Assembly: GCA_028687575.1 (NCBI GenBank)
Contig: JAQTZW010000001.1
Span: forward strand, 294,098 to 358,097
DNA length: 64,000 nucleotides
Direction: 5' to 3'
From: Gallionella sp.
GTDB lineage: Bacteria; Pseudomonadota; Gammaproteobacteria; Burkholderiales; Gallionellaceae
Shown here: in pieces, positions 8,195 to 64,000 of the stretch
How the letters are laid out: each line of letters begins with the position of its first letter
Numbering within the stretch: the stretch's first letter is position 1
Made by a program: the position numbers and the translations under genes
Notes under the pieces: generated by a model
What the model was told of the DNA's origin: nothing
Database searches by the model: none
The model's input: the letters and a program-made list of their open reading frames with translations, nothing else

Positions 8195-8960
8195 TTCCCC
8201 TTATCAGGCGCGGAGCGGACTTGGCTCTCCCTCTGATAAGGGGGAGTTGGAGGGGGTTGAGATTTTGACTTTCTGTCCCCTGCGACCCGCCGAGTAGCCT
8301 GGTAGGGCGCAATATCCAACGGGCATTGCGCCGGATGGTTAAAGTCAAAACCGCCGGTGGTTGACCGGCGGCAAGTTACTTCTTCTTGCGTCGCCAAGAA
8401 GAAGTAACCAAGAAGAAGGCGACCCCAGTTTACCGCCGCCTATGGCGGTTCCCTGCGTTGCTCGGCTGGTCAGGCGGCTGCGGAACTCGCGCTGCGCGCT
8501 CAGACAGTCCTCGCCGACGACCCCTGACCCGCCTGCGCTACTCGGCGGCGCACAGGGGAGCTTGAAAAGCCGGTTTTGTGTGCGCTGCGCGCACGCCTTT
8601 GGTGGAGCGCGAGGAGGGCGCGCCCTCCTCGCGGGGTGGGGGTTCCGGTTTTGATTTATTTCCCCTGAGAGCCGCCTCGTTCTGGCGCAAACGGGCGGTG
8701 CATTTGGGCGAGCACTGTCTGAGCACGTGGCCGCGTAGCGGATCGTGCGAGTTGCGCAGCCCCGCCCGTTTGCGTCGGAACGAGGGAACCGCCGCAGGCG
8801 GCGGCGAACCGGGGGCGATTTCTTTTGGTTCCTTTTCTTGGCAAGACAAGAAAAGCAACTTGCTGCCGGTCAACCACCGGCGGTTTTGGTCAAGCTATCC
8901 GGCACCATGCCCGCTGGAAATTGCGCCGAACCTTGCTGTTTATGGGGATGGCGGGACAAC
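8195..8960. repeat. Converging inverted pair of long interspersed repeats (arms about 8285-8420 and 8820-8960, with related sequence between)
   Basis: CAAAACCGCCGGTGGTTGACCGGCGGCAAGTTAC...AAGAAGAAGTAACC on + (about 8346-8410) matches the reverse complement of 8826-8900 (GCAACTTGCTGCCGGTCAACCACCGGCGGTTTTG); flanking GGGCGCAATATCCAACGGGCATTGCGCCGGAT also matches inverted. Confidence 0.75.
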
Positions 8961-9037: not shown

Positions 9038-9086
9038 TAGACCTGACCCTAGACTCCTAGATGCCCCTAGACTCCTGGACTCCTGC
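9038..9086. repeat. Short degenerate tandem repeats (CTAGACTCCTAG-type)
   Basis: Repeated (c)ctagactcct units at the 3' end of the minus-strand ORF. Confidence 0.5.
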
Positions 9087-9815
9087 ATGAAGCCGAATTA
9101 TGTGGCGCATAAAAGATGACGAAATTTCAAACACGAACTCGATTTCTTCCTCCACTACTGCGTCGTCGTGTTTGATGTATGTGTTTTGGTATTTCGCGTA
9201 GTAGTCGATCAGCTTCGAGAACATGTTCGAGAACTCTTTCGATCCACCAGCCTCGCTGACGAAACTGCCGACATTGCCGAGCTGGTTTTCGAGAGACTTA
9301 TCGTTCTTGAAAACACTTTTTAGTAATAGCTCCAAGCTGAGGCGGAGATCATCAAGTAAGTTTCTGCTGAAGATTCCGTGTTTGTATTTGTGAATTGCCT
9401 GCAAATACAACTCTAGTGCATTAGGGAAACTGTCGAGCCAGTGGCGCGTTTCTTCGGTGAGTGTCTCGTTAAGCTTAGAAAACTCGTCTTTGGGGGCTAG
9501 GTGCGCGAATTGGGAGACGAGCTTTACCTTTAGCGATTTCAGCTCGTCGTATTGCTTGTTGGAAAAGGTTCGGTGACTACACAACTCTCGAATAATTTTG
9601 AATTGAAGAGGGGGAGGGAAGCACTTCAGATTTTCTAGCAGCGCAGTTCGTTTGTTTGGGGCTTCAAACGGATAAGCTGCGTGAGGGATATTGATGTTGT
9701 ACTCGACAGCGTAGGCGTTAAAGGCTTTCACAACTTCGTTTCCACTTAAACCTCGGTTGGTATCAGCCAAGATGTCAGAAGCTAAGCTCAGAAAAGGGAG
9801 AGGGATATGCGGCAC
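9057..9815 (-). CDS. HEPN/abortive-infection-like hypothetical protein; probable stray integron cassette gene with a replaced 3' end
   Basis: ORF on minus; start 19 nt from a GTTAGAG core-like box (9828-9834) followed by an IS110-type left end; sequence (LSGNEVVKAFNAYAVEYNINIPHAAYPFEAPNKRTALLENL... DDLRLSLELLLKSVFKNDKSLENQ) resembles AbiJ/HEPN-type proteins. Confidence 0.55.
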   Translation of the reverse strand: MPHIPLPFLSLASDILADTNRGLSGNEVVKAFNAYAVEYNINIPHAAYPFEAPNKRTALLENLKCFPPPLQFKIIRELCSHRTFSNKQYDELKSLKVKLVSQFAHLAPKDEFSKLNETLTEETRHWLDSFPNALELYLQAIHKYKHGIFSRNLLDDLRLSLELLLKSVFKNDKSLENQLGNVGSFVSEAGGSKEFSNMFSKLIDYYAKYQNTYIKHDDAVVEEEIEFVFEISSSFMRHIIRLHAGVQESRGI

Positions 9816-9834
9816 GAGATGTATAGCCTCTAAC

Positions 9835-10005
9835 GAATGAAAGAAACTTCCCCAACCCGCAGGGGCAGTGAAGTTTCGGCGAGCGGCATCGAATGTGCCA
9901 CGATGGAATTTGCAGATTTCATCAAAACCGACGAGAGGGTGGAAGTGGCGGCATTATCACCGTCGGCATCGCGCTTGCCAAGATTGTTTTTTCGGTACAG
10001 GGGGT
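9835..10005 (+). mobile_element. Solo left end of an IS110-family element (copy A), transposase truncated after the N-terminus
   Basis: Aligns to 60807-60955 and 63881-64000; ends with GGCATTATCACCGTCGGCATCGCGCTTGCCAAGATTGTTTTTTCGGTACAGGGG (IITVGIALAKIVFSVQG, IS110 transposase N-terminus). Confidence 0.7.
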
Positions 10006-10172
10006 TAACGAGTCTGCCCGGACGTAACGGTGCAAGTCGAGGGTGGCCGTGAGCCATTGCCGCCGCCGCCCTCTGCGTAGCTGTCACCCGGCCCGCCCGG
10101 CGCTTCGTGCCGATCAGGAACGAACTGTTTGCTATCATGGCGTCCCCGTACCAATCCGACGCATACCCGCCC

Positions 10173-60131: not shown

Positions 60132-60779
60132 CTACTTGCTTCCGTAGTTTTCAATCTCTCGAAGCAGGTCTCTAAGCACAAGGCGCAAGCTGTCTGCCAT
60201 AGCCACTCGCATCGCTTGTTCGATGAAGCTTACCTGGCTTCCACTGTAGTCTGGATCATTATCGGTAACGACATGCTCGATTTTGCGTTCCCATACGACA
60301 TTCCCGTTCCGTTCCAACCAGAACCGTACGGCAGCGATTCCTTCCACACGAACAATGAGGAAGCCATGGGTTTTCGAGCAAAATGCATATATTTCTGATT
60401 TAAGTGTGAGCCGCTCTGGTGGGGGCGAGGTTGAAAGCGCCTGCTCGATCAAGCGGGACGAGGACAGTTCCTGATTTACTCGTTCGTAGAGGATGGAAGA
60501 GGCAGTGTCTAGCCATAATGCATCTGTATCACAGTCTTTGGATGATGATCCAGCGACCCACTCACCATAATGTTTTGACCTAGAGTCAATCGGTTGTTGC
60601 ACGTCAATTGCCAGAGCAAGCGGTTGTTTCGCCGTGAAGCCTGTAGCGGTTTTTGGAAACGAAAACGAGGCACCTGGAATGCGTAGTGCTGATCTGTTGG
60701 AGCTACAACCAGCTATGAATGCACAGGCTATGAGGATAGAGAGCAGTAGACGGAAATTCAATCTGGTAGGTTGGCGCAT
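60132..60779 (-). CDS. Hypothetical lipoprotein; probable integron cassette gene
   Basis: Lipobox LIACAFIAGCSS; starts about 27 nt from a GTTAAC core-like box at 60800-60806 that abuts an IS110-type left end. Confidence 0.65.
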   Translation of the reverse strand: MRQPTRLNFRLLLSILIACAFIAGCSSNRSALRIPGASFSFPKTATGFTAKQPLALAIDVQQPIDSRSKHYGEWVAGSSSKDCDTDALWLDTASSILYERVNQELSSSRLIEQALSTSPPPERLTLKSEIYAFCSKTHGFLIVRVEGIAAVRFWLERNGNVVWERKIEHVVTDNDPDYSGSQVSFIEQAMRVAMADSLRLVLRDLLREIENYGSK

Positions 60780-60806
60780 GGCGAGGTGTGTTTACGATGG
60801 GTTAAC

Positions 60807-60955
60807 GAAAGAAAGGGATTTTCCTGTTCCGTCGGGGCGGTGAGGTTTTAGCGAACGGCAGCGAAAGTGCCGTGATGGAATTTGCAGATTTCATTAAAAA
60901 CAACGAGTGAGCAAAGTGGTGGGCATTATCCCCATCGGCATTGATCTTGCCAAGC
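60807..60955 (+). mobile_element. Solo left end of an IS110-family element (copy B), transposase decayed after GIDLAK
   Basis: Aligns to 9835 and 63881 copies; ends GTGGGCATTATCCCCATCGGCATTGATCTTGCCAAG (VGIIPIGIDLAK). Confidence 0.75.
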
Positions 60956-60985
60956 GCATGTAGGCGCGATTGGCGTAGCGTAGCC

Positions 60986-61234
60986 TTCTTCAAAGGCAAA
61001 GCGGGGCAAGAGAGTTATACCGAGCAGATGAAGCGACGCATCGACAGCGCCGAGGGACGTGCACGTTATGGCAGACGCTTCGCCACCGTGGAGCCGGTAT
61101 TTGGCAACCTGCGACACAACAAGCGGCTGGATCGCTTCACGTTGCGCGGGCGGAAGAAGGTGGACGGACAGTGGAAGTTATATTGCCTGGTACACAACAT
61201 CGAGAAACTGGCGCATCACGGCTATGCGCAGTAG
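60986..61234 (+). pseudogene. C-terminal fragment of IS1182-like (DDE) transposase
   Basis: FFKGKAGQESYTEQMKRRIDSAEGRARYGRRFATVEPVFGNLRHNKRLDRFTLRGRKKVDGQWKLYCLVHNIEKLAHHG; no N-terminal catalytic part. Confidence 0.8.
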
Positions 61235-61312
61235 GGAGTGAGAAAGGCAGCAATGCGGCTGCATTGAAGCGCAAGCATCGGAATATCGTCTGACATAAGA
61301 GAAGCGAAAAGT

Positions 61313-61342: not shown

Positions 61343-61379
61343 GGGACTGACGTTTCGTGAAAAAAGGGTTTTTCTACAG

Positions 61380-61457
61380 CGTCAACGTGGAGCTGAGGGG
61401 CGCGCCGTAGGCGCGTCCCAGCCCCCGAAGGGGGCGAACTCGAGCGTAGGGTTAGCC
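61380..61457 (-). repeat. Integron attC-like site 1 (R' box degenerate)
   Basis: CGTCAACGT...GGCGCGCCgtaGGCGCGTCC...CCCCCgaaGGGGG...GTTAGCC; follows the stop of the TPR gene. Confidence 0.65.
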
Positions 61458-62196: not shown

Positions 62197-62268
62197 GGCT
62201 AACGTGCAAGCTCAGGGGCGCGGAGCCGGCTTGCCGGCGTAGCGTCCCTCTGGAGCGTAGGGTTGGGC
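62197..62268 (-). repeat. Integron attC-like site 2
   Basis: GGCTAACGT...AGGGGCGCGGAGCCGGCttGCCGGCGTAGCGTCCCTCT...GTTGGGC; imperfect palindrome between core boxes. Confidence 0.85.
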
Positions 62269-62759: not shown

Positions 62760-62822
62760 GCCCAACGTAAAAGTGAGGGGCTGCGCGCTTCTGCGCAGTC
62801 CCTCTCGACTGATGGGTTGGGC
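62760..62822 (-). repeat. Integron attC-like site 3
   Basis: GCCCAACGTAAAAGTGAGGGGCTGCGCGCTTCTGCGCAGTCCCTCTCGACTGATGGGTTGGGC. Confidence 0.92.
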
Positions 62823-63411: not shown

Positions 63412-63471
63412 GCCCAACGTTGGAGTTCAGAGGCCCGCCGAAGGCGGGTCCGCTGGAACGGATTGTTGGGC
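63412..63471 (-). repeat. Integron attC-like site 4
   Basis: GCCCAACGTTGGAGTTCAGAGGCCCGCCGAAGGCGGGTCCGCTGGAACGGATTGTTGGGC. Confidence 0.93.
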
Positions 63472-63879
63472 ATAGTTACACTCCTTTTCCAGCAATCCTT
63501 CTAGCGCTTCAATTTCTTCCCCAAGCCTTAGAAAATGAAGCGAATTTTTCTCGGCATCGAACTTTTCGGGGGCGTCCACAGCTGCCGAATCAGCACCATT
63601 GGCCTTTAAGTATTCGGTTATTGAATTGTGACCAAAATCAACTGCGACTCTCAATGGCGTAAACCCAAGCTCGCCTTGTTGATTTACGTTGATGCCATTT
63701 TCGACAAGTAGTTTTGCGGCCTCTAAGTCACCCCAGACACAAACGCAGTGAAGAGCGTTGTCGCCAAGTTCATTTGTGGCGTTGATAGAGTCAAATTTAA
63801 CGTAGCCAAAGTCAGCTGTACTTTTGACTTTTTTAAGTAACTCAACGACGCGCTCGTTCAGTGACATGGTTAGGCCCAA
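63427..63879 (-). CDS. Ankyrin-repeat protein, integron cassette gene; 3' end runs into attC
   Basis: NELGDNALHCVCVWGDLEAAKLLVENGINVNQQGELGFTPLRVAVDFG ankyrin repeats; likely ATG at 63867 (MSLNERVVELL); stop inside attC. Confidence 0.78.
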   Translation of the reverse strand: MGLTMSLNERVVELLKKVKSTADFGYVKFDSINATNELGDNALHCVCVWGDLEAAKLLVENGINVNQQGELGFTPLRVAVDFGHNSITEYLKANGADSAAVDAPEKFDAEKNSLHFLRLGEEIEALEGLLEKECNYAQQSVPADPPSAGL

Positions 63880-63880
63880 C
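63874..63880 (-). other. attC core (R') box GTTGGGC interrupted by an IS110-type left end
   Basis: GCCCAAC identical to the box at the two preceding cassette boundaries, followed directly by the conserved IS left end. Confidence 0.75.
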
Positions 63881-64000
63881 GAATAAAAGGGACTTCCCCG
63901 TCCTGAAGGAGCGGAGAAGTTACCGCGACCGGCAACAAAAGTGCCAAGATGGAATTTCTGGATTTCATCTAAACCTACGAGAGGGGGAAGTCATGAGCAT
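63881..64000 (+). mobile_element. Left end of an IS110-family element (copy C), continuing beyond the window; transposase ATG at about 63993
   Basis: Aligns with copies A and B over the full 112-bp noncoding region; ATGAGCAT aligns with the IS110 transposase N-terminus in A/B. Confidence 0.75.

What the first reader, a model, noticed from the sequence alone, without database searches (positions are those of the whole stretch)
9835..10005. Three left-end copies, all directly after an (attC-like) AAC core and all in the same orientation
Copies at 9835, 60807 and 63881 align over their noncoding length. All three begin with GAA(A/T)(A/G)AAAG directly after ...TAAC or ...CAAC (CTCTAAC, GGTTAAC, GCCCAAC). 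In every case a minus-strand cassette-like gene starts 7-27 bp to the left. This is repeated, orientation-specific insertion at one site type. Core boxes of A and B are degenerate, so their attC identity is inferred.
Basis: seen in the sequence. Interest (0 to 1): 0.75.

Follow-up and report, generated by a model that had tools for sequence, protein, structure and literature searches.

The report
Integron-targeting jumping gene's left ends

Summary
The repeats at 9835, 60807 and 63881 are left ends of one IS1111-type (IS110 superfamily) insertion sequence. Three more copies lie elsewhere in this genome (C3, C20, C23), and 31 of 200 relatives carry copies. Across 49 distinct sites the triplet left of the element is AAC in 44, always on the same side. 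Full-length copies in relatives have an IS110-family transposase, imperfect subterminal inverted repeats (AAGGGaCTTCCCC / GGGGAAGCCCTT) and a downstream non-coding region holding the guide-like string CTAACGA(A/T)TGAGG. Right flanks complete attC hairpins in 15 of 31 CTAAC-guided elements (3 of 33 others), or are attI next to intI. In sister elements with the same ends the guide changes and the left flank changes with it (TATCC/TATCC, TTAGC/TTAGC, CCGCC/CCGCC; permutation p<5e-5). This is seekRNA-guided insertion as published for the IS1111-attC group (ISKpn4, ISPst6). Two corrections: the window copies are truncated stubs (A, B) or run off the contig (C), and no attC is detectable at A. New points are modest: a Gallionellaceae-type member, insertion at the attI/first-cassette junction, and array-head stubs in a genome whose intact intI lies on another contig.

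The parts
9828..9834 (.). target core CTCTAAC left of copy A (reverse complement of a GTTRRRY-type cassette core)
   Evidence: sequence; core statistics
9835..10014 (+). copy A: truncated left end (LE) of the IS1111-type IS, degraded tnp start; weaker similarity continues to about 10085 by eye
9057..9815 (-). cassette-like ORF (252 aa, no Pfam hit) starting 19 bp left of A; no attC found at its far end
60800..60806 (.). target core GGTTAAC left of copy B
60807..60955 (+). copy B: truncated, most diverged LE stub (about 150 bp)
60132..60779 (-). cassette-like ORF (215 aa) starting 27 bp left of B
63874..63880 (.). target core GCCCAAC left of copy C
63881..64000 (+). copy C: LE running off the end of the contig (window end = contig end); the right half is possibly contig C25, which starts inside a right end followed by an attC
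63427..63867 (-). ankyrin-repeat cassette gene next to copy C
63412..63471 (.). attC site of the array (model R1, 61.0 bits; this site was one of the model's training sequences)
62760..62822 (.). attC site (70.9 bits; training sequence of R1)
62197..62268 (.). attC site (56.4 bits; training sequence of R1)
61379..61456 (.). degenerate attC site (21.5 bits, E 0.0009; not a training sequence)

Best explanation
The copies are left ends of an IS1111-type insertion sequence of the kind called IS1111-attC. Shown by sequence: in full-length relatives the element is GAATGA + subterminal repeat AAGGGaCTTCCCC ... IS110-family transposase ... downstream non-coding region ... GGGGAAGCCCTT + GTA. It sits between the C of the core ...YYAAC and the following G(T) of an attC (or of the attI/first-cassette junction), with the transposase pointing away from the adjacent cassette gene. 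Shown: the non-coding region carries a segment identical to the left half-site plus the element tip (CTAAC+GA(A/T)TGA) and a second segment (TTGTAGT..) resembling the right tip plus right flank; both covary with the flanks across related elements. Inferred from the published IS1111 mechanism: the non-coding region is transcribed from the circular intermediate as a seekRNA, the transposase-seekRNA complex finds YYAAC|G at the integron recombination site by base pairing, and inserts the circle there in one orientation. In this genome the copies in the window have since decayed to stubs that keep only the cassette-side end (A, B), or are cut by the assembly (C).
For: Domain hits PF01548 and PF02371. 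Four identical full copies in one closed genome at four sites, all CTAAC on the left. 44 of 49 LE sites with AAC. Guide 5-mer equals left flank in 47 of 64 elements and at least 4 of 5 bases in 59 of 64; for 22 elements with other guides, 87 of 110 positions match against 51.7 expected, p<5e-5. The right-hand segment covaries too, p=2e-4. An attC stem in the joined empty site in 15 of 31 CTAAC-guided elements against 3 of 33 others, two of which are attC copies with no guide found. intI lies right of several copies, in two cases directly at attI. Published mechanism and target for ISKpn4 and ISPst6: PMC11187229; right-end bridge RNAs in the IS1111 group: PMC11208160.
Against: No intact copy of this element is present in the assembly of this genome: the only intact IS110-family transposase, on C29, is a different element. 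Copy A has no detectable attC and no syntenic empty site, because the region upstream of rep differs in all relatives examined. 5 of 49 sites lack AAC, apparently by mutation of the core. RNA expression and transposition are not testable here.
Confidence: 0.94

Rival explanations
1. The conserved left sequence is part of the integron itself (an attI or attC variant, or a cassette) moved by the integron integrase, not an insertion sequence.
For: It always abuts a cassette core and often lies at an array head or near intI.
Against: It leads into an IS110-family transposase with inverted repeats at both ends. The same ends occur at non-integron sites in sister elements with other guides. attI of the G087 copies lies outside the element.
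Confidence: 0.02
2. The several stubs in this genome arose by duplication of one array end (segmental duplication or homologous recombination) rather than by independent insertions.
For: All five true stubs found with the left-end query keep the same end, and A, B and C3 share a variant around the tnp start.
Against: Left-flank genes differ at every site apart from the core, right flanks differ, and the stubs differ in length and divergence.
Confidence: 0.03
3. The stubs are retained because the left end carries an outward promoter that drives the neighbouring cassette, replacing the integron promoter. (This concerns why stubs persist, not what they are.)
For: TTGGCA-17-GATAAT on the strand facing the cassette. 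All 12 positions intact in all five stubs (0 of 60 changes against 116 of 645 elsewhere). B and C3 stop just past the -35 box.
Against: The hexamers overlap conserved codons (I-I, L-A-K), a similar site exists in non-integron sister elements at 8-9 of 12, shorter stubs of 19-93 bp without it occur in relatives, and the test was post hoc.
Confidence: 0.1

Closest known systems
IS1111-attC group (ISKpn4, ISPst6, ISPa25, ISPa21; [quoted passage not shown] 2024 PMC11187229)
   Same: IS1111-type transposase, sTIR with short unequal extensions, downstream NCR with segments matching the target, one position and one orientation at one end of attC
   Different: New sequence members in Gallionellaceae and other Betaproteobacteria. 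Some copies sit at the attI/first-cassette junction. The window copies are truncated. Direct identity to the named elements was not measured.
IS1492 (P. putida) and relatives in Burkholderia and Cupriavidus
   Same: About 75% transposase identity and near-identical element ends
   Different: Guides and targets are TTAGC, TAATC, TATCC or CCGCC, not the integron core
IS5708-like elements of Enterobacteriaceae plasmids
   Same: 66-68% transposase identity and the same ends
   Different: Many related copies sit at CTTAAC|GTACAATAATTTTCGATATCC.., a conserved non-integron target
IS621 / IS110 group bridge-RNA elements (PMC11208160)
   Same: RNA-guided DEDD recombinase
   Different: Bridge RNA lies in the left end, long sTIR absent

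Membership tests
IS1111 family | IS110-type DEDD transposase | tested here: met
   PF01548 and PF02371 above cut-off in the full-length relative; the window stubs keep only the first codons
IS1111 family | subterminal inverted repeats with short unequal extensions | tested here: met
   AAGGGaCTTCCCC / GGGGAAGCCCTT (one base longer on the left) with about 6 and 3 bp outside, in full copies
IS1111 family | longer non-coding region downstream of tnp with target-matching segments | tested here: met
IS1111 family | circular intermediate and seekRNA bound to the transposase | not testable with these tools
   needs PCR and RNA sequencing
IS1111-attC group | insertion at one position and in one orientation next to the attC core | tested here: met
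   44 of 49 sites with AAC; attC completed by the right flank in full copies
IS1111-attC group | attC present at each window copy | tested here: inconclusive
   clear attC sites in the array beside C, one degenerate site near B, none at A
IS1111-attC group | sequence relation to ISKpn4 / ISPst6 | not tested
   their sequences were not found in the searched collections under those names

The most novel reading that the evidence does not exclude
IS1111-attC insertion at the attI/first-cassette junction, followed by decay of intI and of the element's far half, may be a route by which integrons turn into integrase-less cassette arrays. The surviving left end may serve as a substitute promoter for the stranded cassettes.
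Probability: 0.1. Interest if true: 0.55.

Novelty: new member of a known kind. Interest (0 to 1): 0.3.

Why it matters
It extends RNA-guided integron-targeting insertion sequences to Gallionellaceae and many other environmental Betaproteobacteria. It also gives a natural data set in which guide and target change together among elements with otherwise equal ends, a direct sequence-based test of the seekRNA model. The attI-edge copies suggest a concrete, testable effect on integron function.

Tried and rejected
Rfam has no family for these sites in the window. No empty site for A: the region upstream of rep shows neither the cassette nor the stub in any of the 19 other rep loci examined, and is not syntenic. 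The cassette next to C has no homologue in 200 relatives, so no occupied/empty pair could be shown for C. Retention of the left-end promoter as an adaptation was tested and left as a weak idea. The idea that only left ends survive was weakened by a right-end stub at C21:64693-64946. The isolated fold of the NCR is not more stable than shuffles (z -1.2), so folding alone gives no support. A first permutation for the right-hand guide had a register error and was redone.

Full report
Observation. Using copy A as query, the genome (2.9 Mb, 29 contigs) gives five places: A, B and one each on C3, C20 and C23. C was not listed there; the contig ends 120 bp into it, but it aligns at 87-89% to other copies. 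A cassette-side minus-strand ORF begins 19, 27 and about 13 bp to the left of A, B and C; the other three genomic copies have the same arrangement.

What the sequence is. In L008 the repeat leads into the start of an IS110/IS1111 transposase (..ITIGSDLAKNVFSVHGVNEAGRAELVKPRVAREQLLPLIG.., read by eye). Searching 200 relatives found copies in 31. A closed 2,717,229-bp genome (G087; its length fits Ferriphaselus amnicola OYT1, 2.72 Mb in PMC6256698, so that name is an inference) has four copies identical over more than 1.4 kb. The G087 copies show the whole element: GAATGA, then AAGGGACTTCCCC, a 341-aa transposase (PF01548 and PF02371), a non-coding region, and GGGGAAGCCCTT, GTA. These are the hallmarks of IS1111-type elements: subterminal inverted repeats with short unequal extensions and a long region downstream of the gene (compare PMC11187229).

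Target. Over 49 distinct left-end sites, the commonest bases at -5 to -1 are C 46, T 42, A 48, A 46, C 46; AAC is exact in 44. The next base on the other side of full copies is G, usually GT. Joining 7 bases of left flank to the right flank yields a strong attC-like stem ending in GTTRRNY in 15 of 31 CTAAC-guided elements and 3 of 33 others. Two of those three (L222, L167) are visibly attC, with no guide found in the element. Several of the remaining CTAAC-guided sites look like attC with one altered box (L023, L214, L215, L087) or are attI: in G087 intI starts 183 bp from the right end of L043, and only a 38-codon stretch of intI homology remains beside L046. A covariance model built from 15 attC sites, three of them from this window and so matched by construction, finds these and a fourth, degenerate site (61379-61456) in the window's right-hand array. 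It finds none near A. Elsewhere in the genome it finds attC at C7 (two) and C9.

Mechanism. The non-coding region of CTAAC-class elements contains CG(A/G)CTAACGA(A/T)TGAGG-like sequence, i.e. the left half-site fused to the element's own tip. Sister elements with 65-76% transposase identity have the same ends but other guides, and each sits beside its own guide sequence: L148 TATCC, L146 (IS1492) TTAGC, L147 TAATC, L149 CCGCC, L169 TACAT, L174 ATAAG, L181 TTATC, L184 ATAGC, L213 GAAAT. Over 64 elements the guide and flank agree exactly in 47 and in at least 4 of 5 bases in 59. For the 22 with non-CTAAC guides, 87 of 110 positions agree against 51.7 on shuffling (p<5e-5; the de-duplicated set gives the same). 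The second segment, GTTGTAGTNN, agrees with the right flank beyond chance. Related elements are not independent, so the p-values are indicative. CCAAC sites fit a G-U pair at that position; this is inference. The whole picture matches published seekRNA/bridge RNA guidance, including for attC-targeting ISKpn4 and ISPst6. That an RNA is made and used here is inferred, not shown.

State of the copies here. A and B, and the copies on C3, C20 and C23, are stubs of about 150-250 bp. C runs off the contig. Contig C25 begins inside a right end followed by an attC and a cassette-like gene, and may be the other half of C. C21 holds a right-end stub. One intact intI lies on C9, whose contig ends 256 bp upstream of it. 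The stubs keep an outward promoter-like pair unchanged in all five, but the pair overlaps conserved codons and resembles the site in non-integron sisters; I treat retention for expression as a weak possibility.

Verdict. The element belongs to a described kind (IS1111-attC), so interest is moderate to low. The attI-edge copies and the stub-headed arrays are the parts worth following; whether attI-edge insertion has been reported before could not be checked, because the two founding papers are not in the held library and the seekRNA paper does not mention attI.

Noticed in passing
window 60960-61235: Fragment resembling the C-terminal part of an IS1182-type transposase (..RRFATVEPVFGNLRHNKRLDRF..) lies directly right of stub B; identification by eye only.
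   Followed up: no
L043-L046 (G087): Three of four identical IS copies sit at attI-like sequence beside intI or its remains: one intI intact, one reduced to a 38-codon match, one with little more than the start left.
   Followed up: partly
L180, L150, L155, L197-L201: Enterobacterial sister elements share a 30-bp right flank, GTACAATAATTTTCGATATCCAAACTGACCCC, next to CTTAAC; it looks like a transposon end used as a fixed target.
   Followed up: no
window 8300-8930: Large imperfect inverted repeat (AAGTTACTTCTTCTTGC.. / ..GCAACTTGCTGCCGGTCAACC) between the 470-aa gene and the cassette-like ORF left of A.
   Followed up: no
L009 1170-1215 and window 60955-60990: Stubs C3 and B both end at CTTGCCAAGC and continue with a similar GTAGGYGCGATTRGCG repeat, suggesting a shared way of truncation.
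   Followed up: no
L042 (G000:C29) 1-140 and 1049-1495: A different, intact IS110-family element, with a GCCCAACGAATAGC core-like sequence several hundred bp beyond its transposase near the start of contig C29.
   Followed up: no
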